DNA of 64,000 bases, from the NCBI GenBank assembly GCA_038030265.1, contig CM075941.1, positions 41,850,164 to 41,914,163 on the forward strand. Reading direction: 5' to 3'. A program made the translations under genes and the position numbers. Below are positions 31,275 to 58,311 of this stretch, piece by piece; positions within the stretch are counted from its first letter, which is position 1; each line of letters begins with the position of its first letter. The DNA is from Corythucha ciliata (taxonomy: Eukaryota > Arthropoda > Insecta > Hemiptera > Tingidae). The notes under the pieces are model-generated. The model saw only the letters and a list, made by a program, of their open reading frames with translations, made no database searches and was not told where the DNA came from.

Positions 31275-31316
<42 letters not shown>
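31275..31316. repeat. (TA)n microsatellite at a mariner insertion site
   Basis: About 21 TA units directly abut the left end of the mariner-like element, which inserts at TA. Confidence 0.95.
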
Positions 31317-31320
<4 letters not shown>

Positions 31321-33772
31321 GTTTCGCAACCAGTCGTGAATACTGAAAGAGGTGATACAACAGGTGATTTAGAGTCGATATTGTTCTTTTCGACTTTTTC
31401 GAAAACCCATTCGTTCCCGAGATATCGATTAAAATCGATATTTTTGGACATTCGTTACTTTTCCTCATTTAAGAGGGCGTAGCGCCAATACAAAAGCAAA
31501 AAAAACAAAAACTAATCAGGTCGTTGGAAAGAGCGCAAAATGTCCTTCAAATTTGTGTGCTAAAATAGGAAAAATACCCCCTCCAACGATAGTAAAATTA
31601 GCCCAGAACTTAACGAAAATCCTTTTCTATTTTTTTCCGTTACTGTTCAAAGCGTGTTAACTTTCTTAACTCAAGTGGCACGGAAGATTCAGATGCGCGG
31701 AAAAACTTCTGCATTCAGCTAGCTTTCGAATGGTATGCGACAATAACAAGCTATGATTTGTCTATCGCTGGGAATGCCACTGAAAATCCGAAAACGGATT
31801 GAAATCTATTGACGCAGTGCTTAAGTTCTGAAGTAGCTGTCTGACTACAGTGAGTGCAGGAAGCATAAATTTCCCAGAATAATCATCTGTAACGTGCAAT
31901 TGTTCTTTCGAGAGATTTTAGTTATCTAATAATATGATTTCATCGTTTCTTTCCTAAATTTTCCAACGTTAAGAACACACAGATCGTCACATTTTGTCTT
32001 TCGTTCGTTGATCCAGGTAACGTCATGACGTCTTTTTCAAACGAAGAGTACGCGGACATTGTTTATGTGTATGGGCTTGCTGATGGGAATAACTCGCTCG
32101 CACGGCGTTTGTATGAGGAGAGATTTCCAACACGTCGAATTCCTCAAGCTGACGTTTTTAGTAATTCGTTCCGTCGCTTCAGGGAGACTGGAACTTGCTC
32201 TCGTCGCCGCGTTGAAAGGAACAGGAGAATTCGACCTCACCGGGAGGAAGCGGTATTACAAGCGATTGAGGAAAATCCTCGTGCAAGTTTTCGGCAAGTT
32301 GCTCGAGACTATCGGGTGACTGCTAAGAGAGTTTGGTCGGCTCTGAAAGGGGAGAATATGCATCCCTTTCACTTCACCCCGGTACAGGGTCTGGAACCTG
32401 GCGACGAAATTAGGAGGGTACAATTTTCTCAATGTATCCTGGATAAGGATTCTCAGGACCCTAATTTCCTGAAGTCCATCCTTTGGACCGACGAATCCAG
32501 GTTTTCCAGAGAAGGAATAGTCAACTTCCACAACATCCACTTTTGGAGCAAAAAAGGGGAAAATCCTTGGGTTAAACGACCGACTTCGTTTCAAAGTAAA
32601 TTCAGCATAAATTTGTGGGCAGGAGCAATCGGTGAACACTTTATTGGGCCCTTTGTGCTGCCTGACACGCTGAACGGAAGCAGCTATCTGCGCTTTCTTC
32701 GAGAGGAGCTTCCCGGTCTTCTCGAAGATTTGCCATTGGAGATCAGGAGAGACATGACTTTTCAACACGACGGGTGTCCCGCTCACTTCAGCCGAGATGT
32801 AAGAAACTTCCTGAACGATTCGTTTCTATAAATTGGCCACCGCGTTCTTCCGACCTCACTCCTCTAGACTTTTTCGTGTGGGGACGGTTGAAGGAGATTG
32901 TGTATTTCGAAGAGGTACAAACAAGAGAAGATCTTATGCGCAGAACTGAAACCGCAGCAGGAATCCTCCGGCAGGAGTGGAGACTCGGCGTGACCACTAC
33001 TGAAGTCCGAAATAGGGCTAGAAAGTGCATCCAAAACAACGGCAGTCATTTTGAGCACCTCAATTGAAAGTTCTTTCACTTTTGGGAACGTTTTGTTTTT
33101 AACAATTACGTAATCAATCTTCTTCACGAAAATACATGATGGTGCAAGTACATCTGGAAATTTTGTTAAAAAGTTTCATTAGAATCTGGTCGAGTTATAG
33201 TAAAACAATCAATTTAATTATTGCGAATTGCGACTGCTTTAGAACGGCGGCTGGTTAGAAAATGAAGAAGCGCGTTAACCTATTCAAAGCAGTTTTTGGA
33301 TTTTCAGTGGCATTCCTAGCGATAGACAAATCACAGCTTGTTATTGTGGCATACCATTCGAGAGCTAGCTGAATGCAGAAGTTTTTCCGCGCATCTGAAT
33401 CTTCCGTGCCACTTGAGTTAAGAAAGTTAACACGCTTTGAATAGTAACGGGAAAAAATAGAAAAGGATTTTCGTTAAGTTCTGGGCTAATTTTACTATCG
33501 TTGGAGGGGGTATTTTTCCTATTTTAGCACACAAATTTGAAGGACATTTTGCGCTCTTTCCAACGACCTGATTAGTTTTTGTTTTTTTTGCTTTTGTATT
33601 GGCGCTACGCCCTCTTAAATGAGGAAAAGTAACGAATGTCCAAAAATATCGATTTTAATCGATATCTCGGGAACGAATGGGTTTTCGAAAAAGTTGAAAA
33701 GAACAATATCGACTCTAAATCACCTGTTGTATCATCTCTTTCAGTATTCACGACTGGTTGCGAAACACCCTG
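31315..33772 (+). mobile_element. Mariner-like element with ~490-bp terminal inverted repeats
   Basis: The left end TAGGGTGTTTCGCAACC and the right end (complement of CAGGGTGTTTCGCAACC) start inverted repeats that remain near identical for about 490 bp (31315 to ~31805, and ~33285 to 33772). TA flanks both ends. Between them lies one transposase frame with a single frameshift. Long TIRs of this size are uncommon for mariner elements, whose ends are usually tens of bases. Confidence 0.9.
32025..33067 (+). pseudogene. Mariner-type transposase with N-terminal helix-turn-helix, one frameshift
   Basis: ATG at 32025. The N-terminal ~60 residues (FSNEEYADIVYVYG, ARRLYEERFP) resemble the DUF4817-type helix-turn-helix that precedes DDE_3 domains in insect mariner-like proteins. 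The catalytic domain shows ILWTDESRFSREG (first Asp) and MTFQHDGCPAHF (second Asp). After a frame change near 32820 it reads WPPRSSDLTPLDFFVWG, where the third acidic residue is Asp, giving a DDxD type. The spacing between the second and third acids is about 31-33 residues, short compared with DD37D relatives. A small deletion at the frameshift, removing the usual aromatic/Gly-rich loop, would explain both. Confidence 0.85.
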
Positions 33773-33774
33773 TA

Positions 33775-34180
33775 TATATGGCCCCTCGCTTGTTAGCACG
33801 ATCACGGTCGCAATTTTTTACTTAGGGCAACCAAATTTGGTCTAAAAATCAATAGCGTGAATATCTCGGACGAGTTCGTGATCCAGATGAATCGGTCCAC
33901 GGGAACGGTGTGAAAGAGGGGTTTGAATTAGTTGAAAATTCGCTACCGCACGGCTGTTGCTGCAATTGCCCCCAAAATTGACTCGAGTAATGAGAAATGA
34001 ACGCGCTTTCGAATGAGACCTTTGTGAACCAAATCCGTTGATATGGCAGGGGAGTTCTCGGCGGAGGGGAGCTATTAAATAAACGCTATGCTTTACTGGA
34101 CCACCCAATTACCAAAACATTTCATTGAGATTGTATTTTGAGCCGTCTCTTTTATTTGATTTGGCGAAAATATGTGGTAA
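33775..34180. other. No gene seen
   Basis: Short intergenic stretch. The N-terminal part of the following piggyBac frame cannot be traced into it. Confidence 0.4.
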
Positions 34181-35462: not shown

Positions 35463-37310
35463 TTACGCCACCGCCAGGTTAAGGGTTAAACGTACGAAAC
35501 GCGTGAAATTGTCAATGATTGATAAAACATGTCTATTGCCGAATTTTGACCTTGGAAGGGGACCCATGTGGTCGATTGATAGGATTTGAAGTTTTCTTTC
35601 CGTTTTTATTGCGCCCACCAGGTATTTCTCATCGGTCCTCCCGTGTTTGTTTAACTGACACGTATGACAAGTTCTAATTACATGTTTTATTTTGTTTTTA
35701 AAGTGAGGGGTTATAAAGGTTTGCCGAAGGAAGTGGTGGCACTTCTGGACCCCTGAGTGAAGGAGTTTTTCATGAGCAGCTGATATGACTTCCTCCGCCA
35801 TAGCAGATGGCAAGAATATTAATTTTCTGTTTTCACATTGCTGATAAACAATCCCCTTTTCTTCACTGAAAACTCCTGGGCATTTCGCCCGCTTCTTTAG
35901 CAAAATCGGATCTGTCGTTTGGGCCGCGGGTATTTTGGCGAGTAAGTTGCGCTGGAAATTTTTTTGTACTGATATTTTGGCCGCCATTATTTTCAAACGT
36001 GAATCGCGCCCCGGGCACTGAAGGTCCATGGGCGGGTATCTACTGAGGGCGTCAGCAATGACATTTTGCTCTCCCGGTATATACTGAAATGTTAAATTTA
36101 GAATTTGGAGGTATAGAAACCACCGATTTAAACGTGGGGAGGGGTATTGGCAAGTATGCATGAAAGGTATAGCTTGATGGTCCGTCCGGACGACGCATAG
36201 ATGACCGCCGATGTATGAATAAAACTTTTTGCAGGAGTTCACTATTGCTAGTATTTCTAACTCTGTCACCGTATAGTTTTGTTGTGACGGCGAGAGGGTA
36301 TGGCTCGTAAATGCCAAAGGGCGTTTATTCCCCTGGTCGTCTACCTGATACAACAGGCCCGCCGTAGCAATCTTGCTCGAATCCGTCTCCAGAAAGAACG
36401 GTTTTTGGAAGTCCGGAAAACTAAGTTGGACGTCTTTGACGATCATCGACTTAATTGCTCAGAAAGCGGCTTCCGCCTTTTCCGACCATAGCCACGGCTC
36501 TTTTTTCCGCGTTAGCTTGAACAGTGGGGTTGCTACCTCCGACAGGGATGGCATGAAGCGGGCGTAAAAATTGACTATCCCGAGGAAAGATTGTACGGTT
36601 TTAACATTTGTTGGGGTTGGAAAATTTACGATTGCGTGTACTTTCTCAGGGTCCTTTTTTATCCTCTCTGTCGTTAATATGAAACACAAAATAGGGAGCT
36701 CCTGCCTAAAGAATTGACATTTTTTTATATTTAATGTAATGTTTTTGTTCGACAGATATCAAAAATTGTTTGTAAGTGCTTTAAATGCTCTTCCACGCCC
36801 CTAGAAAATACGAGGCAATCATCGACGTAACATTGTATGTTTTGGCTTAAACCATGTGGTATTAATCTACGGAAGGCCTTCTCAAGAGCCGCTGTCGATG
36901 TCCGAAGTCCGAAAGCGACCCTGCAGTACTCATAGACCCTGCCCCTGTGGCGAAATGCCGTGTATTTCCGGCTATCCGGATGCAAGCTGACTTGGTGAAA
37001 GGATGAGGTGAGGTCGAGGGTCGAAATGTGGGTGGTCCCATTAGCGTTCTGTATTATATGGTCGAAAGTTTGGGGTATGTCGTGCTGTTCCAGCATTCTT
37101 TGATTCAAAGTTCGTGCATCTAGTATGAAACGAACTGCATTATTTTTTTTGCGCACTACTAGGGCCGGATTTAGATAAGGACTGTCAGAAGGTTGAATTA
37201 TGCCTTGGGACAAAAGTCCCTCCATCTCAGCATCGACCTCCGCCTGATCGGCCGCTTTGATGGGATATTGAAAAAGTTTGAAAGGCTGGGTATCTTTCAA
37301 CTCTATTTTA
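35463..37310 (-). pseudogene. Gypsy Pol, C-terminal part: RT, RNase H, partial integrase
   Basis: Starts at the Harbinger insertion point (KDTQPFKLFQYPI). RT motifs: RFILDARTLNQ, STLDLTSSFHQV, CYVDDCLVFS (catalytic YVDD intact), then after a frame change near 36720 KKCQFFRQELP and VQSFLGIVNFYARF. An in-frame TGA follows EKAEAAF (near 36466). RNase H: FFLETDSS, TVTELEILAIV, YIPGEQNVIADALSR. The integrase H2C2 finger (HEKLLHSGVQKCHH, CHTCQLNKHG) and the first core Asp (ILSIDHMGPLP) are present, but the frame stops at 35463 before the rest of the core. It replicates the element by reverse transcription when intact; this copy cannot integrate by itself. Confidence 0.87.
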
Positions 37311-37673
37311 AGCTAGGGCCACACATGCGGCATTCGCCGAGTGCCGAGTAAAGTTTCGCCGAATCACGAATAGTGTGGCCGGGCACTCGCTATTCGCCGA
37401 GTGGCAAATATTCGTACTCGGGGGTGCTCCGCTTGAAGTCGGTCTTTTACCCGAGTCAAAGGAGGCGAATATTCGTGAAGTGACGAGCAAATTCCCCGGC
37501 CACACATTCGGCATGTGACTAAGCGATTATTTAGGGGGATGAAAACGAAAAAGAGGTGAAAGGAGAAAAAAAGGTGCTGAGTATTTTTTTTAATGTCCTT
37601 GCCCTTGGCTCCCTCCGTTTCACGTTTGTCATCTTCATTTCATCTGTGACCAGTGAGAATTATTTTCGTCGCC

Positions 37674-40094
37674 ATGGAGTGGACAAACGAATTAATTGTG
37701 CAGTTTCTAGAGTTATATGAAATGGAAGAACTAATTTGGAAGGCGTCGCATCCCAAGCACAAGCAGCGACACGATGTCCATGACGCGTGGAGACGATTGG
37801 AAAGTGGCATGGGGGGCCAATTTTCAATTCAAGAACTAAAAAAAAAAAAAGATTTCTTGATGGCATCGTTTAGGGGGTGCTTGAAGAAAGTGAAGGAGAG
37901 CAAGAGGAGTGGAGCGGGGAGTGACGAAGTTTACAAGCCAAATTGGTTTGCTTATGACATCATGGCCCGGTTTCTCGCTGACAAGGACACACCACGAGAG
38001 ACTATCAATTCAGAGGTGAGTTCAATAAAATTTATCACTTCTATGGAGTTATTGCATGCCCAAAATAAATTTATGAAAGACTTAAAATGTCGGGGAAGCG
38101 GCTGCAAAAATTGCCTATTTTTCTTTTTACTTGTTCTTGCCCGGATCGACCACTCATCTCGAGCACTTTTTTTTTCACCCATTTCCAAACTTACTTGGGG
38201 GAACATGGAAGTTAAAGGTGGCCCAACGTATAAATTGAGCCTTACTCCGTAACAAGGGGAAGAGTTTGACTTATAAAGTGAGAAATCATTTTCCAGGTTT
38301 ATTTCAAAAAATTTATTTCAATACCTTAACAAACAGTTAAGAATAAAAGAAAAAAAAAAAAATGAAACATATAAAAAACTTGGAAGTAAAAGCAGCGATA
38401 ATTAGGCATACTCGTCTTGCCATGGCACTCGCCCTGTGTCGACGAAATACTCAGCAAAACGCTCCCTTATTTCGCGTGCTTCCGTAGAAGCCCGTCGAGG
38501 AATTTTGGGGAGTGGTATCATGGAAGATGAATCGACGCTTTGTCGCCATGATCCATTCACCACATTTCCAGCGTTCTCCGAGTCTAGAGAGCCTGGTGGA
38601 GTGTACAATTGTCGTGATGTGTTGCTCCTTCTTAAAAAGTTGTGTAAGCAGACACAAGCCATCACCACTGCAGAAGCTTTATCGGGTTCCAGTAGCATGG
38701 GTTTTCTAAGAACCCGGAAAACGTTAGCCATTATACCGAATGCATTTTCGACTACTCTCCTCGCTCTCGAAAGTCGGTAGTTAAAAATACGATGTCTGCT
38801 TCCTTGATCGTGGAGGCCAGGAAAGGGCTTCATCATTCGCCGGCTCAGAGGAAAAGCGTCGTCGCTGACAATGACGTACGGCATCGGCTGTTCGATCCCC
38901 AGCAATTGGTGGTCCGAAGGAAAATTGAGCTGTTCCTCGTCGATTTTTCTGCACAGTAGGGTGTTCTTGTAAACAGCGCCATCGCTGAGCCTTCCTTGGC
39001 ACCCACATTCAGCGAAGAGGAAGCAGTAGTTAGCGTCCACTAGGCCCATAAGAACGATGCTGAAAAATTGCTTATAATTGAAGAAGTCTGACCCGCTTTT
39101 CCTTGGTGCCTGAACCATGACGTGTTTGCCGTCTAAAGCCCCAATGCAAAGTGGAAAATCCCAAATGTCTTCAAAACCTTGAGCAACATTCCTCCATTCT
39201 TCTTGTGAAGAAGGCATCTGAAAAAAAAGTAAAAAAAAAAGTAAACAGTACCTACTTAGGAAAGTTCACGAAACAAAATGAATTGTTCATTTTTTTTTTT
39301 TTTTCAATCGAGTTATTTTACAGCCTGCGTAAAGAAAACAAAATTCCACCTCATCTTAGCCCCCTCCGCCCTAGGTTGATAGCATGATATACGCAGCCAA
39401 TGGAGTTTTTTAAGAAGCGATTCTAGCATGGCATGGTTCATAATTTGATTTATTATCCTCTCAAGCGTGCGTTGTGATGCCAATTTTTCGGTTTCAGGAA
39501 CCGCTGTTCGCACCTAATGCTTCCAACGTCACGTCTCCAGAAATCGAAGTTCCCGACAACGACGATGCAAGAAGCGTTCTCGACTGTGAAGATGGTGCTC
39601 CTCAAACTTCTACCTCGAGACCGCCTGCTCGAAAGAAGAAAAGAGGAGCACAAGACGATGAACTTAAAGGAAAGATGGACAATGCATATGCAATTTTGCA
39701 AAATGCTGTGCAAAACCCAAAAAAAGAAAAAGACTTGTGCGACCTGTACGGAGAATTGATAGCGGTGAAGCTGAGAAATTTAGACGAGATTGCACGAGAA
39801 GTATCTATGAACCGCATAGACAATTTACTATTCGATATGAGAACCAACCAAAGACAATTCGGCGGGAATAATCTTATATTCTCTCAACCGAGTCGTGATT
39901 CATCACGATTCCAACATCACTATTATTCTGAAGCCCACGTATCAACCCTATCAAGTCCCTCACAACTGCACACAGCTTCAACTGTATCGCAGCAAATTTC
40001 AGCAACAGACACCGACGAAGAAAAGGCTTCACAAGAGGAGACTGGAAGGAACGAGCAACCTACAACCAATACCATGAACTTTACATCTCTTTGA
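37674..40094 (+). CDS. Harbinger MADF-domain accessory protein
   Basis: Two exons: 37674-38015 (ATG at 37674, donor AG|GTGAGT, phase 0) and 39498-40094 (acceptor CGGTTTCAG, TGA end), 312 residues. The N-terminal ~100 residues form a MADF/Myb-SANT-like DNA-binding domain (NELIVQFLELYE, LIWKASHPKHKQR, AWRRLES, KKDFLMASFRGCLKKV, YKPNWFAYDIM). A Ser/Pro/acidic linker with a basic patch (ARKKKRGAQ) follows, then a helical segment (YAILQNAV, LCDLYGELIAVKLRNLDEIAREVSM). Family members are thought to help the transposase reach the nucleus and the element ends. The 1.48-kb intron contains the last transposase exon on the other strand, and exon 2 lies in a transposase intron. Confidence 0.85.
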
Positions 40095-40913
40095 ATTCTT
40101 CTATTTTTCGTTCTTTTATACATACTTATTTTTTCGTTCTTTTATCTTTTTTTTTTTTTTTTTTCGTCTATATTTTCTTTCAATTGTTATTTTTACTTTT
40201 TGCAAGCCGATTTTAAAAATTGTAAATAAAAAAACTGATTTCTTACAATCTATAAAAATGCCAAGTTATAGTACTCACTCACCTTTACATACTCCTCCCG
40301 CAGTACATGTATTATAGCTTTGCATCCATCAGCTACGATTGTAGATATCAGCTGATGGGAGACTTTGAAAAGGTACTGGAGGCTTCGAAAACTGTCTCCA
40401 GTTGCCAGGAATCGGAGCGTTATCGCCAAGCGCACATTCGAGGCAACAGCTTCCCTCCACTTTGTATTCTTCTTAGCAATTAATGGCTCAACTTTCGACA
40501 GCAACAAATGGAAGTCTTCAGTTGACATGCGGCAAAAGTTAAAGAACTGCCCTGAAGTCGGCTCTCTAGACAAGTCAGCTAGCAAGCTGGATCCATCATA
40601 ACTGTGAATTAACGTTTACCCAGTGAAAAATTTATGGCATAAAAATAATTAATCGAGGAGCTTACTTTCAAATGGTATTGATTAATTTATCGAAATGGAC
40701 ACACTTATTACCTACGTCCACCCTCAAAGAGTTGCAAACACTTATGAAAATGAGCTCCACTGATATTGAAAAAAAAAAAATTTACCGTCTCCTGCTGTTG
40801 CTGAGTGACAGCATCCACCATCTCCTCCTAATGGCTTTTTTTTTCTTTTTTCTCAACACGTACCCTGCACTCAAAACAGTGAAGGAGGCCGCAGCAACAA
40901 CTACCTCGTCCAT
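38402..40913 (-). CDS. Harbinger transposase (DDE_Tnp_4), intact
   Basis: Three exons in consistent phase: 40913-40786 (ATG at 40913, donor GTAAAT), 40601-40283 (acceptor ATTCACAG, donor GTGAGT) and 39217-38402 (acceptor TTTTTTCAG), 420 residues. N-terminal motifs: AIRRRWWMLSLSN, SGQFFNFCRMSTEDF, LRFLATGDSFRSL with a helix-turn-helix-like stretch. Catalytic acids are present: Asp in CIGALDGKHV, Asp in GRLSDGAVYKN, Glu in RARRVVENAFG. Cut-and-paste nuclease with TTA target preference. No stop or frameshift is needed, unlike the copy at 1-5 kb. Intron 2 (39218-40282) contains exon 2 of the MADF gene on the opposite strand. Confidence 0.9.
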
Positions 40914-41103
40914 GACTGAACGACTGACGACTAAACATTTACTCGCCCAAGTACTCGTCTCTTTCCCGAGACGAGGAAAGGAGCTAGACGAATACAGCAT
41001 GTGTGGCCAGGGTGTTTTTACTCGCCGAATAGCGAGCCGAGCCACTCGAGACTCGGCAAATATTCGGCAATCGGCGAATACCGCATGTGTGGCCCTAGCT
41101 TTA

Positions 41104-41873
41104 TGTTCATAGTGAGGAATTAGCCCAGGAACTTCACTAAATATTTTCCTATTCTGACGCAGTAAGCTACAAAATCTGTCCTTTACGCCGTTTGGTACCC
41201 CTTTAATCGTTTGCCCAATTCGCTCTACTGTTTCGTCAAACGTCTCTTCTACATTCGTCTCCTTCCCCTTAAGTTGTCGGTGACTTTGTTCTTGTCCAAT
41301 GATCTGAATGGTTGGGGCCTCCCCTTCATACGGTTTGAAAGATAGCTGAAGGCTTTTTGAATTTATTGTTAGATGGATTAATTTTGATTTGAAATCTATT
41401 TGCCCCGCCCACTCTTGTAGCAAATTTACTCCCACAATAACATCATGATTTAATTTAGGCACTACTAGAAAATTACAGGTTGTTTGGAGTAACTGAATTT
41501 GTAGAGGGGTTTGAACTTGTAACTTTATGCGGGTTGATTTTTTGGACACAGCTGTTTTTATACACGTTCCTTGAACGGGGAGTGTTTCACAATTTCTTGA
41601 ATTTTTTAAATGTTTATTAAAGATTTCTTCACTAACTGCTGTGACTTGAGACCCTGTGTCAATCAAAGTTTGTGTTGACACCCCGTTTATCATTATGTTG
41701 ATAATGGGACACCCACATTTCCACCCTCTCCCAGCCATCAAACCCTCCTCCTCACTCTCCAAGTCACTATCCTCAAAGAGGTTTGCAATTTGCGGGTTCG
41801 TCTCCGACTTGTTATTGTTTACCACCTTATCGATGAACTCGCGAAAGGTTGTCCGTGGCTGTCTCATGTCGAC
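41104..41873 (-). CDS. Gypsy Pol, protease region
   Basis: In the same frame as the JAMM domain and directly downstream of it. A short linker (TTFREFIDKVVNNN, acidic LFEDSDLESEEEG) leads to a retropepsin-type protease: IINIMINGVSTQTLIDTGSQV (active site DTGS), HDVIVGVNLLQEW. The region continues to PGLIPHYEHK, where the nested Harbinger interrupts the frame at 41103; the RT resumes at 37310. The protease would cleave the Gag-Pol precursor. The active-site triad is intact. Confidence 0.85.
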
Positions 41874-42485
41874 CACGTCTACCGTGCAGTCTTCGTCTAC
41901 TCTTATGTGCGCCGCTTCTTCAAACAGTGGAGAGCACTCTTCATGTTAATGGAAACCCCGCTCGCGACATGTAGCAATAGCCTTCATACCCTCCTCCGTC
42001 AAAGAGTATATGCCAACTTCGTCATGCTTAGGCGCGCACACGATCGCGACGGATTCGGGTAGCATAATAAGCTGCAACGAGTAGGATGTATGCAAGTCCA
42101 CACTGGACAAAAAGGAACTCTGTGAGGGGTGAACATGTATCCAACCGCAGACGATCAGACCTGTAGAAGCCAGGTGCTCCGCGAGAAGGTGCTCTCCATG
42201 TGCCGTACACGAATTCGGCCCTCCCTCCTGCGGTGGCACGAAAAGAACCGAAATTCGGAGTACCCCACCTGCTCCCCGTTTACCTAAAAGGTACGCACAC
42301 GTTTCTATTCCCCTATCTGTATTTTTCTTTGCAGGTATTGAAAATTCGTCAATGAGTACTGCAGGAATCACCATTCTGTTGTAGGTCCGAGACGCTATTC
42401 CGCGCGTGCCGATTTGAATTCCAGGGTGAGAAGAATCACAGCGGACACCTTCTACTTTCCTTTTCTCCCCACCCCGCCCACCTAG
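41874..42485 (-). CDS. AMSH-type JAMM (MPN+) metalloprotease domain at the N-terminus of Gypsy Pol
   Basis: Counting from the ATG at 42374, the JAMM zinc signature is complete: Glu24 (RGIETCAYLLGK), His80-x-His82-Pro then Ser90-x2-Asp93 (GWIHVHPSQSSFLSSVDLH). The extra zinc site typical of AMSH/STAMBP is also kept: His95 (DLH), Cys136 and His142, and His144 just past a stop. The domain matches the full AMSH catalytic length (~165 residues) and runs on in frame to SPLFEEAAHIRV and VDVVDMR, which mirror the AMSH C-terminus. AMSH enzymes cleave Lys63-linked ubiquitin chains. A TAA at 41946 replaces the residue between His142 and His144. The frame opens 37 codons upstream of the ATG, at CTA 42485, the codon reached by a -1 shift from Gag. 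Confidence 0.88.
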
Positions 42486-42493
42486 TTTTTTGG
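42462..42493 (-). promoter_or_regulatory. -1 ribosomal frameshift site: A_AAA_AAC, UAG, then G-rich tract
   Basis: On the minus strand Gag ends CCA AAA AAC TAG. This contains the heptamer A AAA AAC in the zero frame, one of the canonical -1 slippery sequences. A -1 slip avoids the UAG and enters CTA GGT GGG, the open frame of the JAMM-Pol protein. Two bases further on come four G tracts (GG, GGG, GGGG, GGGG separated by single bases), able in principle to form an RNA G-quadruplex or other stable block. The inference of function is by motif and frame only. Confidence 0.75.
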
Positions 42494-43618
42494 AACAGCT
42501 TCTATTATTTTTTGGAACTCCGTCGGCCCTCCCCCGGCTTCCTCAACCTCCAAGGCTGACACTCCTTTCCTCGACCTATCTTGCCTTATGGGCGACTGTG
42601 ACCGGGCTCGACCGGCATACCTTCCTCCACTATCTCGTTCCCTCCAGTACGAGTTCCAGGGCCTACTCCCCCTCTGCTCCCCTCGCCTAGGATAAAATTT
42701 TCTACCGGAGTTCGGTGACCGCGCGACGTTCCCTTGACTCCTGGGGTCTTGCTTTGGTGTCTCCGTGGCTCCTGAGACTTTCTTCGGAGTCGACGCCGAC
42801 CGAGGAGGTGACTTCCCTCTCTCTAAAAAGTTACTTGACGAAAGCTGTCCATTATTCAAATTTATTCTCCCCACATACTCTAGGAACGTGTCTAATCTGA
42901 CAATATTCTGGAGTGTCACAACCTCTTCGACTGAGGAACCGAAGTGGGCCGCCAGAGTTCGAACCAGAAACGACTCATCGTGCGGTAGTCCCGCGTTCCG
43001 AAGTCTCTCTACTATGGACAGGACGTAAACTTGAGGATTTCGACATTTGCTAGAGTAAAACGTACCCGAGTACAACAGCTTTGAGAGGTACAGTTTATAC
43101 GTGTTACCAAGAAAGGCTTTCCCGAACTCCTCATAAAATGAAGGAAAATCTACCAACTGTTCTTGATAACTCAGGAACCAAGTCAAGGCCTTCCCCGAAA
43201 ACAGGCTCCTGACGCGCATTTTGAAAGGTATCACCGATAAATCCCAAGAACGGGCTAACACTCTCAATTTCTCAACAAATTGGAAAGGACAACCTTTTTC
43301 GAAATCGGAGAAATGAATATCCAGGCATTTCTCACTGCCGGCACGTTCCTTGAAGAGTGACGCAAGGCCGGTCAGTAGCTGCGTTACGAGGTCTTGACTT
43401 TGTTCACCTGCCCTTGGGATTACGTCCCTCTGCCCTGAAGAGGCGCGGGCTTCAACCTCATCTATTCGGTTCCGCAATTCACCCAACTTTTCCGCGGTAA
43501 TATTTGCCAAACGAGTGAGCTCTTCAAGTCGCTCTTCTTTTTCCCTACCAACGAGCTCTTCCACGGCGTTGCGAATCCCCTCGACTCCCTCCTGGGTCTT
43601 CTGTACCGTGGTGTTTAG
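42482..43618 (-). CDS. Gypsy Gag
   Basis: Open from 43618 (after an in-frame TAA) to TAG at 42482. No ATG occurs in the early part, so the start is a non-AUG codon or lies in an upstream exon. The N-terminal third is a coiled-coil-like stretch (REKEERLEELTRLANITAEK). The central part matches the retrotransposon Gag capsid family (FKMRVRSLFSGKALTWF, FPSFYEEFGKAFLG, LYLSKLLYSGTFY). There is no CCHC knuckle; instead the C-terminus is Arg/Ser/Gly rich (KFYPRRGEQRGSRPW, RARSQSPIRQDRSRKG), which may bind RNA. It forms the particle shell and is fused to JAMM-Pol in a fraction of products if the frameshift site works. Confidence 0.82.
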   Translation of the reverse strand, partial: LNTTVQKTQEGVEGIRNAVEELVGREKEERLEELTRLANITAEKLGELRNRIDEVEARASSGQRDVIPRAGEQSQDLVTQLLTGLASLFKERAGSEKCLDIHFSDFEKGCPFQFVEKLRVLARSWDLSVIPFKMRVRSLFSGKALTWFLSYQEQLVDFPSFYEEFGKAFLGNTYKLYLSKLLYSGTFYSSKCRNPQVYVLSIVERLRNAGLPHDESFLVRTLAAHFGSSVEEVVTLQNIVRLDTFLEYVGRINLNNGQLSSSNFLERGKSPPRSASTPKKVSGATETPKQDPRSQGNVARSPNSGRKFYPRRGEQRGSRPWNSYWRERDSGGRYAGRARSQSPIRQDRSRKGVSALEVEEAGGGPTEFQKIIEAVPKN

Positions 43619-44280: not shown

Positions 44281-47268
44281 TTATAACCGATGTAGCGGTC
44301 GAATTAGCGTCGTAGTCGGCGTTTTAATTTTGGCTACCCGAGCCACCCCGTCAAGTCCTGGATAAGTCTCCAGTATCCGCGCGATCGTCCATTGTTGCGG
44401 AGGAGAGTCTTTGTCTTGTAGTACGACAATCGCTCCGATCGGTAACGAAGGGGTTGAGGTCCACCATTTTGACCTAGGCAGGAGGGTTTGAAGGTACTCC
44501 AAGTGCCAGCGTTTCCAAAAGTGTCGGACGCACGCGGAGAGCATTTCCCAACGAGTGTTCATAGGGAACGACAGGGCTTCCCCATCTGGACGAGCGAGTA
44601 GAGGTTGACCTGTGAGGAAATGACCCGGAGTGAGGTAATCACAGTTGTCATTCGGATCCGGAGAAATGCTGCACAGAGGTCTCGAGTTTAAAATAGCTTC
44701 GATCCTGGAGAGTAAAGACGAAAATTCTTCGAATGTCAAGGCATGATTCCCAACGACGCGGACTAGATGGTGCTTGGCAGACTTAACCACAGCTTCCCAC
44801 AAACCTCCAAAATGTGGCGATGCTGGAGGAATGAAATGCCACTGGATATCGCGCGCGGACAAGTGGTCCGAAATGGCATCCTGATGTTGTGACAGAAAGT
44901 CGTAAACGTCCTTGAGACGGCGAGCTGCCCCGACGAAGTTTGTCCCACGATCACTATGAAGAACCCTAGGAAGACCCCGGCGGGAAATAAACCGATCTAG
45001 AGAGGCGAGGAATGCAGATGTCGACAGCTCCGTTACTAATTCAAGATGCACCGCCTTGGTAGCAGTACATACGAAGAAACAAATCCAGCATTTGTACAAG
45101 CGTGAAGTTCGACGTTTCGACTCTTTGTAAAGAAAGGGACCACCATAGTCAACGCCAACTTCAAGAAAAGCACGGGCCTGTGTTACCCGCATCGAGGGGA
45201 GCGGTGCCATCAAGGGTGTTTGAGGCTTAACTTTGAATTTGTAACACTGGACGCATTGGAAGGTCCTATTTCGGATTAACTGTCGGGATGAAACGATCCA
45301 GAAACGACGCTGTATGAGACTCTGAACTAATTGAATTCCTCCATGAAGAGTATACGCGTGGAAATGATCGACTAACAAGACTGCGAGATGAGACTTCTTC
45401 GGAATTAAAATTGGATGTTTTGAATTGAAAGGCAATGTAGAATTAGTTAGGCGTCCTCCTACACGAATGAGGCCATCCTCCGAGATGAACGGATTCAAAC
45501 GTTTGAAGGAACCGAAGTCCTGACGATCGTTGTGTAAAGATTCCAGTAAGACAGAAAATTTGTCGGCCTGAAGGATTTTGATGTAGGCCACTAAAGCTTT
45601 ATTGATCTCAGAAGTCTGAAGATGTCCTGATGGCCGTGGCTCCGAAGACGGACTTTTCGAAATTCGATTTTTTAGTCGATTAACGAATCGGAGAACCCAT
45701 GCCATTATCCGGTTAAGTCTAATGTACGACGAAAATTTATCGCACTGCTCGAGCAGGTCGTTGTGGCAATTTTGAGTTGCTAGAGAAATTGTCTTTCGTT
45801 CAAGAACGCCTGAAGTAGGTTCCAAATTCTGGATAGGCCAATCTGAAACCGGTAACTTGAGAAAATCCGGTCCATTCAAGTAGAGCGAATGTTCCAAAAA
45901 TTGCGAGGGCGTGAGACCTCGAGAAACACAATCAGCCGGATTAGAACTAGTGGGGATCCACAAGAAGGTTCGGTGATTTCCAGGATTTGGACCACCCGAT
46001 TTGCGACGAAAGTCTTTAGAAGATACGGAGGAGTTTGAAGCCACCACAGAACATTTTTTGAATCGGAGAAACAAATAATTTTGTTGACGCCGCTTTTTTC
46101 AATGAATGGCTGCAGAGTACGAACAACTTTGGCGGTGAGGAGAGCAGCACAAAGCTCGAGGCGAGGAATACTAATAGTTTTCAACGGAGCCACTTTACTT
46201 TTTGCCTTTAAAAGGTGAACGAATCTCTGCCCTTGTGCAGTCTCCACTAGAAAATTAACGACACAGCCAAACCCTTTCTCAGACGCGTCCGAAAACGCCG
46301 CCAACATACACGAAGAATTGTCCGTATAGGACAGAAAACGAGGAAGTGAGAACTCTTGTAGTTCTCACTCAATTTAGCCCACTCATTCCGGAGTGGAGGA
46401 GGCAGCGGATCATCCCAGCCCAATTTATGTAACCAAAGACGTTGCAGAAGCGATTTGATCCAAAATGTAACAGGACTTAAGTATCCATTTATGTCGAAAA
46501 TTCGAGCAATGACCGATAAAACAGCTCGTTTGGTGAAACCTGACTGAGAAGTGTCGACTACGTAGCTAAGGCTATCTGATTTCGGATTCCACTGGACCCC
46601 TAATATCTTAAAGGACGACGAAGAATCGAAGGATAACGGATTGTCCCGTTGAACTTCCGAAATGGTACTTAAGACGGTAGAGTCATTGCTGGCGAACTTG
46701 TGGAGCTTGAATCCTCCAAGAGAAAAGAGTTCGTTGAGTTCCTCGCAGAGCCGAATAGCACTCTCGGTTGTAAAGGCTCCCGAGACAATGTTGTCGACAT
46801 AAATATCGCCGCTGCACCGCGATGCGTTAGGAAACTGAGCACTGGAAAGAGCGAAGAGTTCGATAAGCACTCGTTGAGCCAAAAACGGAGAACTTTTCAA
46901 TCCGAAAGGTAACGTGGTCAGCTCGTATTCTTCTATGGGCAGGTAGGAGTCAAACCGCCAGAGGAAATGAACGAATTTCCTGTCCTCGGAAGAAAGCCGA
47001 ATTGAGCGAAACATTTGCTTGACGTCACACGAGATTGCGACCGGAAATAATCGAAAGTTATCAATGATCTGACCGATATTTGACTGAAGCGGTTTTCCTG
47101 GCAATAATAAATCATTTAGAGAATTAAAACCAGTAGTGTGCTCAGAACCATTGAATACGATTCGCAGTGAAGTAGTCGAGTTAGGTTTTGCTACCCCGTG
47201 ATGAGTCATCAAATAGTCACCATGGCTGTTGGTCAGAGATACGTGATCTGCATCAATGTGACGATTTT
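44281..47268 (-). pseudogene. BEL/Pao element 1: Pol (RT, RNase H, integrase), decayed
   Basis: Minus strand. RT part from about 47268: STTSLRIVFNGSEHTTG, FNSLNDLLLPGKPLQSNI, AISCDVKQMFRSIRL, LPFGLKSSPFLAQR, then IYVDNIVSGA, where the second catalytic Asp of YVDD is Asn. RNase H after a frame change near 46370: MLAAFSDASEKGFG, SIPRLELCAALLTAK, CFSDSKNVLWWL. Integrase after a further change near 46000: HPILIPKKSHLAVLLVDHFH, VDYGGPFLYKE, VLHSDRGTNFVGAARRL, PASPHFGGLWEAVVKSAKHH, ending RPLHRL at 44281. Gag, protease and the start of RT are missing. The breakpoint is near 47268, where a satellite array begins. Confidence 0.87.
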
Positions 47269-51135: not shown

Positions 51136-51620
51136 TGGACGAGAATGTCCGTCAGATGCTGCCCTCTGGCGTAGTTGGTGGGAATTACCTTCATATAGGC
51201 TGAATGGGGGGAACCCTTTTGAGCCCCTTCTCTGTGCCGTTTTTATGGGAGAACTAACTAACTGACCGTTGGGCAATCACCCTGGAATTCTGGAAAACTG
51301 GAATTATCGCTGGAAAAACTGTTTGTGTTCCGTCGGGAAATCCCAAAGTGAGCGGAGTCTGGATTACGCGAGTCTGAGTGCGTATCATATATTTTCTGCC
51401 GGTCGCCCGAATTCAACGCGAGTGGTTGACGTCGACCAGAGAGCTGAACTCTCACCCTGCCCAAGGTAAAGCTATTACAGATCCATATAATTGTGCCAAT
51501 TGTTCTCAATACTGCGTTCCTGAACGTAAATCAGGTGGTCCTCCCCTATGCTAAATCTGCTGAAACTTAAATCACCCCCCCTGTCTGAAATTCTGTCTGC
51601 CGGTTAATGGCTTACAACCA
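51136..51620 (+). repeat. 5' LTR of BEL element 2
   Basis: 485 bp, near-identical to 57827-58311. The first bases differ slightly (TGGACGAGAATG versus TGGACAAAAATG). Confidence 0.95.
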
Positions 51621-57826: not shown

Positions 57827-58311
57827 TGGACAAAAATGTCCGTCAGATGCTGCCCTCTGGCGTAGTTGGTGGGAATTACCTTCATATAGGCTGAATGGGG
57901 GGAACCCTTTTGAGCCCCTTCTCTGTGCCGTTTTTATGGGAGAACTAACTAACTGACCGTTGGGCAATCACCCTGGAATTCTGGAAAACTGGAATTATCG
58001 CTGGAAAAACTGTTTGTGTTCCGTCGGGAAATCCCAAAGTGAGCGGAGTCTGGATTACGCGAGTCTGAGTGCGTATCATATATTTTCTGCCGGCCGCCCG
58101 AATTCAACGCGAGTGGTTGACGTCGACCAGAGAGCTGAACTCTCACCCTGCCCAAGGTAAAGCTATTACAGATCCATATAATTGTGCCAATTGTTCTCAA
58201 TACTGCGTTCCTGAACGTAAATCAGGTGGTCCTCCCCTATGCTAAATCTGCTGAAACTTAAATCACCCCCCCTGTCTGAAATTCTGTCTGCCGGTTAATG
58301 GCTTACAACCA
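57827..58311 (+). repeat. 3' LTR of BEL element 2
   Basis: Partner of 51136-51620; followed by the duplicated GACGT. Confidence 0.95.

What the first reader, a model, noticed from the sequence alone, without database searches (positions are those of the whole stretch)
41874..42485. Gypsy element that encodes an AMSH-type JAMM deubiquitinase-like domain at the front of Pol
Seen: between Gag and protease, on the same strand and in the Pol frame without introns, lies a full JAMM domain with Glu24, HxHP-x6-S-x2-D (His80, His82, Ser90, Asp93) and the additional AMSH-type ligands His95, Cys136, His142, His144. Known: AMSH/STAMBP enzymes with this second zinc site are Lys63-ubiquitin specific and act with ESCRT on endosomes. 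Inference: the element may counter ubiquitin tagging of its own Gag or Pol, or alter ESCRT/endosomal handling of particles. I know of OTU- and Ulp1-type peptidases in mobile elements, but not of an AMSH-type domain in a Gag-Pol. Novelty cannot be confirmed without a search.
Basis: partly seen in the sequence, partly recalled or inferred. Interest (0 to 1): 0.93.

Follow-up and report, generated by a model that had tools for sequence, protein, structure and literature searches.

The report
Retrotransposon lineage with built-in deubiquitinase
In one animal genome a whole group of jumping genes (Gypsy retrotransposons), some of them recently inserted, carries a captured copy of a cell enzyme that removes ubiquitin tags, built into the front of the protein that copies the element.

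Summary
Confirmed, and larger than reported. On the minus strand at 41862-42377 lies an AMSH/STAMBP-type JAMM domain between a gag-like ORF and a DTG protease. The window copy is dead: an in-frame TAA lies between two zinc-site histidines, and a PIF/Harbinger transposon (37311-41100) splits protease from RT. It is not a lone junction: the same genome holds at least nine families of such elements, several copies with open Gag frames and 1289-1348-aa Pol frames; five LTR pairs are 99.7-99.9% identical. Order: Gag, -1 slippery A AAA AAC, JAMM, protease, RT, RNase H, integrase. RT rows at least 52% identical to the query have a JAMM upstream in 33 of 38; rows at 41-51% in 0 of 34. Four sister elements show Gag, slippery site and protease without JAMM. 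Zinc ligands are conserved while synonymous sites are near or at saturation. No other JAMM-Pol appeared in my protein, phage or viral-contig searches, nor a report in my paper searches; these have known blind spots. Best reading: a Gag-Pol-borne deubiquitinase that protects the element's own Gag/Gag-Pol from K63-ubiquitin-directed destruction; the function is inferred, untested.

The parts
42485..43618 (-). Gag-like ORF (378 aa, stop to stop)
   Evidence: Retrotrans_gag only E 0.09; homologous Gag frame in sister copy L038
42485..42491 (-). -1 slippery heptamer A AAA AAC directly before the gag stop (TAG, 42482-42484)
41946..42542 (-). Start of the Pol frame (-1 relative to gag), 198 aa up to the in-frame stop
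41862..42377 (-). AMSH-type JAMM domain (the part before the stop plus its tail after it)
41946..41948 (-). in-frame TAA that cuts the JAMM between two histidines of the second zinc site; the sister copy L038 lacks it
41415..41702 (-). retroviral-type aspartic protease (LIDTGS)
   Evidence: gag-asp_proteas E 2e-07, RVP E 5.6e-06
37311..41100 (-). PIF/Harbinger DNA transposon inserted in the element between protease and RT, TSD TTA, TIR AGCTAGGGCCACAC; DDE_Tnp_4 at 38405-39265
36737..37306 (-). RT fragment of the same element (63% identical to the L014 RT query)
   Evidence: C5:41886900-41887469
35486..36323 (-). further element-derived sequence, 96-97% identical to L038/L050

Best explanation
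A lineage of Ty3/Gypsy retrotransposons captured the catalytic JAMM domain of an AMSH-type deubiquitinase, without AMSH's N-terminal targeting part, between its -1 frameshift site and its protease. Shown by sequence: position, frame, conservation, association with one RT group, recent insertions. Inferred: the domain is made only in the minor Gag-JAMM-PR-RT-IN product, goes into particles at enzyme stoichiometry, is an active K63-preferring isopeptidase that needs no partner, and removes K63-linked ubiquitin from the element's own Gag/Gag-Pol and particles, so that they escape ubiquitin-directed selective autophagy or quality control before reverse transcription and integration.
For: Architecture in several families; an in-frame slippery heptamer in 23 of 24 loci, exactly A AAA AAC in 21; over 34 loci the catalytic Glu is E in 30 of 30 readable, the two catalytic His in 30 of 31 each, Ser 31 of 31, Asp 30 of 31, the second-site His 31 of 31, Cys 29 of 30, and the two His of GFHxH 28 of 30 and 29 of 30 (near-identical copies are included, so these are not independent events); Phe at the AMSH-LP F355 position in 31 of 31 (numbering recalled); nine checked residues invariant in six diverged families; between nine family representatives pS is 0.68-0.93, near or at saturation, against dN 0.36-0.89; JAMM and RT identities correlate (r 0.79, permutation p 0.0035, 8 families). 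AMSH/AMSH-LP cut K63 chains without partners, and Ins-2 with its non-catalytic zinc sets K63 specificity (PMC9313428, passages). In PEG10 the Gag-Pol form, not Gag, is degraded largely through the proteasome (PMC10076021, passages).
Against: No activity, expression or substrate data. Family F4 has His for the Phe of GFH (4 of 30 readable loci), and the T353 position varies (T in 13 of 31), so linkage preference may have drifted. Single loci have lost a ligand: L055 Arg for the first catalytic His, L021 Gln for the second, L035 Gly for Asp, L052 and L025 in the second site. The PEG10 precedent is proteasomal, and that paper says it is unknown whether ubiquitination is needed. JAMM is less conserved than RT (mean identity 40% against 58%). 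Within families synonymous change does not always exceed amino-acid change (L014-L037 dN 0.027, dS 0.024).
Confidence: 0.5

Rival explanations
1. The JAMM acts on host K63-ubiquitin signalling (for example innate-immune or stress signalling) rather than on the element's own proteins.
For: An AMSH-type catalytic core is expected to favour K63 chains (PMC9313428, passages), which also serve kinase activation and trafficking (PMC4276913, start of abstract and passages).
Against: It lies after a frameshift site, so is expected to be scarce and tied to Gag-Pol; a signalling antagonist would more naturally be a separate ORF (inference). No direct data.
Confidence: 0.15
2. It acts at integration: removing K63-linked ubiquitin from chromatin or repair factors at the new insertion, as was suggested for OTU/Ulp1 domains in DNA transposons.
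For: Ginger transposases carry OTU or Ulp1 domains and a DNA-repair role was proposed (PMC2836005, passages); JAMM lies in the same Pol frame as the integrase.
Against: JAMM lies next to the protease, at the far end of Pol from the integrase.
Confidence: 0.15
3. The domain helps ESCRT/endosomal handling or export of particles, like cellular AMSH.
For: Cellular AMSH works with ESCRT (PMC9313428, passages).
Against: No USP8_dimer/MIT domain beside JAB in the pieces scanned; no late-domain motif in 7 of 7 Gag frames; no env between Pol and 3' LTR in L012 and L014.
Confidence: 0.08
4. The domain is now mainly structural or a ubiquitin/Gag binder; catalysis is not what is selected.
For: Some copies have lost a ligand (L055, L021, L035, L052, L025).
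Against: Both zinc sites and the Glu are invariant in six diverged families and nearly so in the readable loci; the ligand losses are in single loci, several of them degraded.
Confidence: 0.12

Closest known systems
Ty3/Gypsy (Metaviridae) LTR retrotransposons
   Same: LTRs, protease-RT-RNase H-integrase order, 4-bp target-site duplication in L012, L014, L017, -1 frameshift layout
   Different: extra AMSH-type JAMM at the front of Pol; 7 of 7 Gag frames scanned lack a CCHC knuckle
AMSH/STAMBP and AMSH-LP
   Same: JAMM catalytic core with E, HxHP, SxxD and the second zinc site; fold
   Different: no USP8_dimer/MIT part in the pieces scanned; embedded in Gag-Pol
OTU and Ulp1 domains in Ginger, Mutator and Helitron DNA transposons (PMC2836005, passages)
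   Same: ubiquitin/SUMO peptidase captured by a mobile element
   Different: cysteine proteases in DNA transposons, not a zinc JAMM in a retrotransposon Pol
AlkB in orchid Gypsy (PMC9289625) and DNMT in dinoflagellate/charophyte retrotransposons (PMC5890265, abstract)
   Same: host enzyme domain captured by retrotransposons and kept
   Different: RNA/DNA modification enzymes, not ubiquitin; the orchid AlkB is in an additional ORF

Membership tests
Ty3/Gypsy LTR retrotransposon | Pol order protease, RT, RNase H, integrase | tested here: met
   Pfam on pieces of L014 and L012; L009 gives protease, RT and integrase (the stretch that would hold RNase H was not scanned)
Ty3/Gypsy LTR retrotransposon | LTR pair with short target-site duplication | tested here: met
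   repeat pairs in 6 of 16 loci scanned, of which five (L012, L014-L017) look like element LTRs; the L018 pair does not; 4-bp TSD read in L012, L014, L017, 3 of 4 bases in L015
Ty3/Gypsy LTR retrotransposon | Gag with CCHC zinc knuckle | tested here: not met
   0 of 7 Gag frames; some Gypsy-type Gags lack it (recalled), so I do not hold it as decisive
AMSH/STAMBP JAMM deubiquitinase, catalytic domain | Glu, HxH, SxxD catalytic set plus second zinc site (His, Cys, His, His) | tested here: met
   in the window copy the last His lies beyond a stop
AMSH/STAMBP, whole protein | N-terminal USP8_dimer/MIT region | tested here: not met
   no USP8_dimer/MIT match in the N-terminal Pol pieces scanned
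AMSH/STAMBP JAMM deubiquitinase | K63-linkage-specific isopeptidase activity | not testable with these tools
   needs an enzyme assay
Errantivirus/retrovirus (env-bearing) | env ORF after pol | tested here: not met
   195 bases between Pol end and 3' LTR in L014 and 97 in L012; other copies not measured

The most novel reading that the evidence does not exclude
A K63-type deubiquitinase has become a core enzyme of a recently active retrotransposon lineage: an element-encoded anti-restriction factor carried with Gag-Pol that undoes ubiquitin tagging of its own proteins, kept through the divergence of at least nine families.
Probability: 0.45. Interest if true: 0.88.

Novelty: new variant of a known kind. 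Interest (0 to 1): 0.8.

Why it matters
It would be the first retrotransposon lineage that I could find with a deubiquitinase inside Gag-Pol. Whether ubiquitin controls LTR-retrotransposon proteins in animals then becomes testable, with JAMM-bearing and JAMM-free sister elements in one genome as a natural comparison, and it points to ubiquitin tagging as a host defence that an element found worth disarming.

Tried and rejected
Chance join or assembly artefact: rejected, because the junction recurs in many copies and families. Host AMSH pseudogene or exon: rejected; Gag upstream and protease downstream recur. Readthrough of the TAA as a designed feature: rejected; sister copy L038 and the family representatives aligned have no stop there (the singleton L003 has one stop inside its JAMM). 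Spread beyond this genome: phage records, tblastn, no match; viral contigs, 41 pattern matches, none confirmed; proteins, three searches: 16 hits; 472 hits, 120 listed; none of the 120 lists an RT or protease domain, five lack USP8_dimer; length range set by a 916-aa Pol piece, 13 hits, none listing an RT or protease domain. These searches cannot see unannotated or masked repeats, and 352 hits were not shown. Papers: nine searches run, of which seven aimed at such captures and two at function; listings read; none listed describes a JAMM in a retrotransposon; Troyka (PMC12440569) and bdelloid elements (PMC5408684) have no JAB/JAMM mention. Subscription journals and Repbase are not covered. One or two captures: in one JAMM tree L005/L039 fall beside Planococcus AMSH (92/41), one clade not rejected (AU p 0.238); in an earlier, smaller tree one clade scored slightly better than the free tree (p 0.556); the RT tree nests L005/L039 with the others. 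Organism: six contig ends showed no telomere-like repeat; not identified. RNA stem after the slippery site: z -2.7 (F1), -2.2 (F4), -1.4 (F6), -0.8 (F3), -0.6 (F2, segment not starting at the heptamer), +0.5 (a sister without JAMM); suggestive only.

Full report
WHAT IS AT THE SITE. The segment codes on the minus strand. ORF 41946-42542 ends with an AMSH-type JAMM up to GFH, then TAA, and the frame goes on in ORF 40782-41945 with the JAMM tail and a LIDTGS protease. The best solved-structure sequence matches are STAM-binding protein (E 2e-35) and AMSH-like protease. An AlphaFold model from 34 sequences (mean pLDDT 72) matches AMSH-LP 2znr best (TM 0.67 by query). The Gag-like ORF (42485-43618) is in another frame and ends in A AAA AAC TAG. 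A PIF/Harbinger element occupies 37311-41100 with TTA duplicated; the uninterrupted site is present in the sister copy L038. An RT fragment of the same element lies at 36737-37306.

IT IS A LINEAGE. The window lies in a 400.9-Mb, 57-contig genome; that it is an animal is my inference from its BEL/Pao elements and gene content (recalled). The Pfam JAB profile gave 39 matches there, all of which I fetched. Eight rows are host genes that I read from their sequences as CSN5, PSMD14, Rpn8, eIF3f and eIF3h (names recalled), one (L008) I did not identify, and the other 30 are JAMM loci of this kind, ten or more of them in frames of 1027-1348 aa. A Planococcus AMSH query gave 48 matches, a lower bound; of its places outside I fetched four (L052-L055) and left the rest. 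In one search, pol is -1 to the upstream Gag frame in 23 of 24 loci (L025, a fragment, is the exception); in some degraded loci left out of that call (L002, L010, L023, L029) the upstream frame listed stands in another relation. In 17 rows a DTG/DSG motif follows at residue 246-322 of the Pol ORF. Nine reference families: eight are 31-55% identical to each other in the JAMM; the window family is 35-49% identical to five of the others (not measured against F4, F5 and L039). Five further singletons (L003, L021, L023, L025, L055) are 46-56% identical to the nearest reference.

DOMAIN ORDER AND AGE. Pieces of L014 and L012 give JAB, aspartic protease, RT, RNase H, H2C2, rve and SH3_Tf2-1; L009 gives the same apart from RNase H, whose stretch was not scanned. 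Direct repeat pairs were found in 6 of 16 loci scanned. Five (L012, L014-L017) look like element LTRs, with BLAST identity 99.71-99.85%; for the four of equal length the K2P distance is 0.0015-0.0029. The L018 pair (99.40%) has other edges and spacing and I do not count it. TSDs of 4 bp were read in L012, L014 and L017. These insertions are thus recent, and several copies have open Gag and Pol frames.

FRAMESHIFT. An in-frame A AAA AAN heptamer sits at the gag end in 23 of 24 loci, exactly A AAA AAC in 21. The JAMM therefore lies downstream of the shift and would be made only in Gag-Pol (inference from established retroelement biology; no frameshifting was measured).

GAIN ON ONE BRANCH. An RT query from L014 gave 119 scored rows of 6414 candidates. 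I compared 72 rows (41% identity or more; the 47 rows at 33-38% were left out of the script) with the 48 JAMM rows. At 52% identity or more, 33 of 38 RT rows have a JAMM within 6.5 kb upstream on the same strand; at 41-51%, 0 of 34. Rows are not copies: a broken copy can give two rows, and the 52% line was drawn after seeing the list. Of the five exceptions I looked at one, L061, which keeps a JAMM tail, so it is a partial deletion. Of five sister loci read, four (L056, L057, L059, L060) have gag, A AAA AAC (in frame by my arithmetic on the positions) and the protease with no JAMM in between; the fifth (L058) is uninformative. L060 shares the spacer before the protease with the JAMM families but lacks the JAMM: an outgroup from before the capture, or a loss. 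In an RT tree ten JAMM families form one group (96/96) against three other Gypsy RTs of the same genome, which are long branches. JAMM and RT identities correlate (r 0.79, p 0.0035, 8 families).

SELECTION. Between nine family representatives (36 pairs) pS is 0.68-0.93 while pN is 0.28-0.52; the closest pair by dN (F4-F5) has dN 0.36 and dS about 2.8, dS being poorly determined. Within families changes are few: L009-L010 dN 0.002, dS 0.040; L038-window dN 0.022, dS 0.070; L014-L018 0.007 and 0.016; L014-L037 0.027 and 0.024, no synonymous excess. Ligand counts are; 23 of 34 loci show all nine checked residues, the other 11 being fragments, unreadable in part or changed in one or more. L024 (the window copy) and L003 are counted as complete although a stop lies inside.

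ORIGIN. Eight of ten element JAMMs form a clade (100/99) in the tree with cellular AMSHs; L005/L039 fall by insect AMSHs with weak support, and one origin is not rejected. Among the rows whose sequence I saw, none was the host's own AMSH gene; four places (C7:3918152, C5:745314, C4:2433108, C5:39533110) were neither fetched nor paired with an RT row. A USP8_dimer search found nothing, but its controls found nothing either, so absence is not shown.

FUNCTION. AMSH and AMSH-LP cut K63 chains without partners, and Ins-2, held by a non-catalytic zinc, gives linkage choice (PMC9313428, passages). Conservation of that site makes a K63-type isopeptidase the most likely activity. For substrate I favour the element's own Gag/Gag-Pol because the enzyme would be made with them (inference). 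PEG10, a domesticated gag-pol retrotransposon gene, shows that the frameshifted form can be singled out for degradation, largely proteasomal (PMC10076021, passages). The ESCRT reading lacks the companions that I tested for.

NOVELTY. Known kin are OTU/Ulp1 in DNA transposons (PMC2836005, passages), AlkB in orchid Gypsy (PMC9289625, abstract and section 12; JAB is not among the domains named in that section for 121 angiosperm genomes), DNMT in retrotransposons (PMC5890265, abstract) and extra ORFs in bdelloid elements (PMC5408684, passages). Seven paper searches aimed at such captures and the sequence searches named above showed no JAMM in a retrotransposon. I rate it a new variant of a known kind.

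Noticed in passing
G000 as a whole: No cellular AMSH gene was recognised among the matches to an insect AMSH whose sequence I saw, although other MPN genes (CSN5, PSMD14, Rpn8, eIF3f, eIF3h) turned up; intron-split exons may have been missed and four places were not examined.
   Followed up: partly
44281-47266 (-): A BEL/Pao element Pol (RVT_1, Peptidase_A17, rve, DUF5641) lies directly upstream of the Gypsy gag.
   Followed up: no
L055 (C50:5200-8200): A further JAMM family with Arg in place of the first catalytic His in an otherwise open frame; possibly an inactive JAMM.
   Followed up: no
L060 (C3:52190880-52192480): A sister element with the spacer typical of JAMM families but other sequence where the JAMM would be.
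   Followed up: no
window 31308-31795 and 33292-33779; 51136-51620 and 57827-58311: An inverted repeat pair (98%) and a direct repeat pair (99.4%), the latter perhaps LTRs of another element.
   Followed up: no
Gag frames of seven families: No CCHC knuckle; an Arg-rich tail instead in several, which may serve RNA binding.
   Followed up: no
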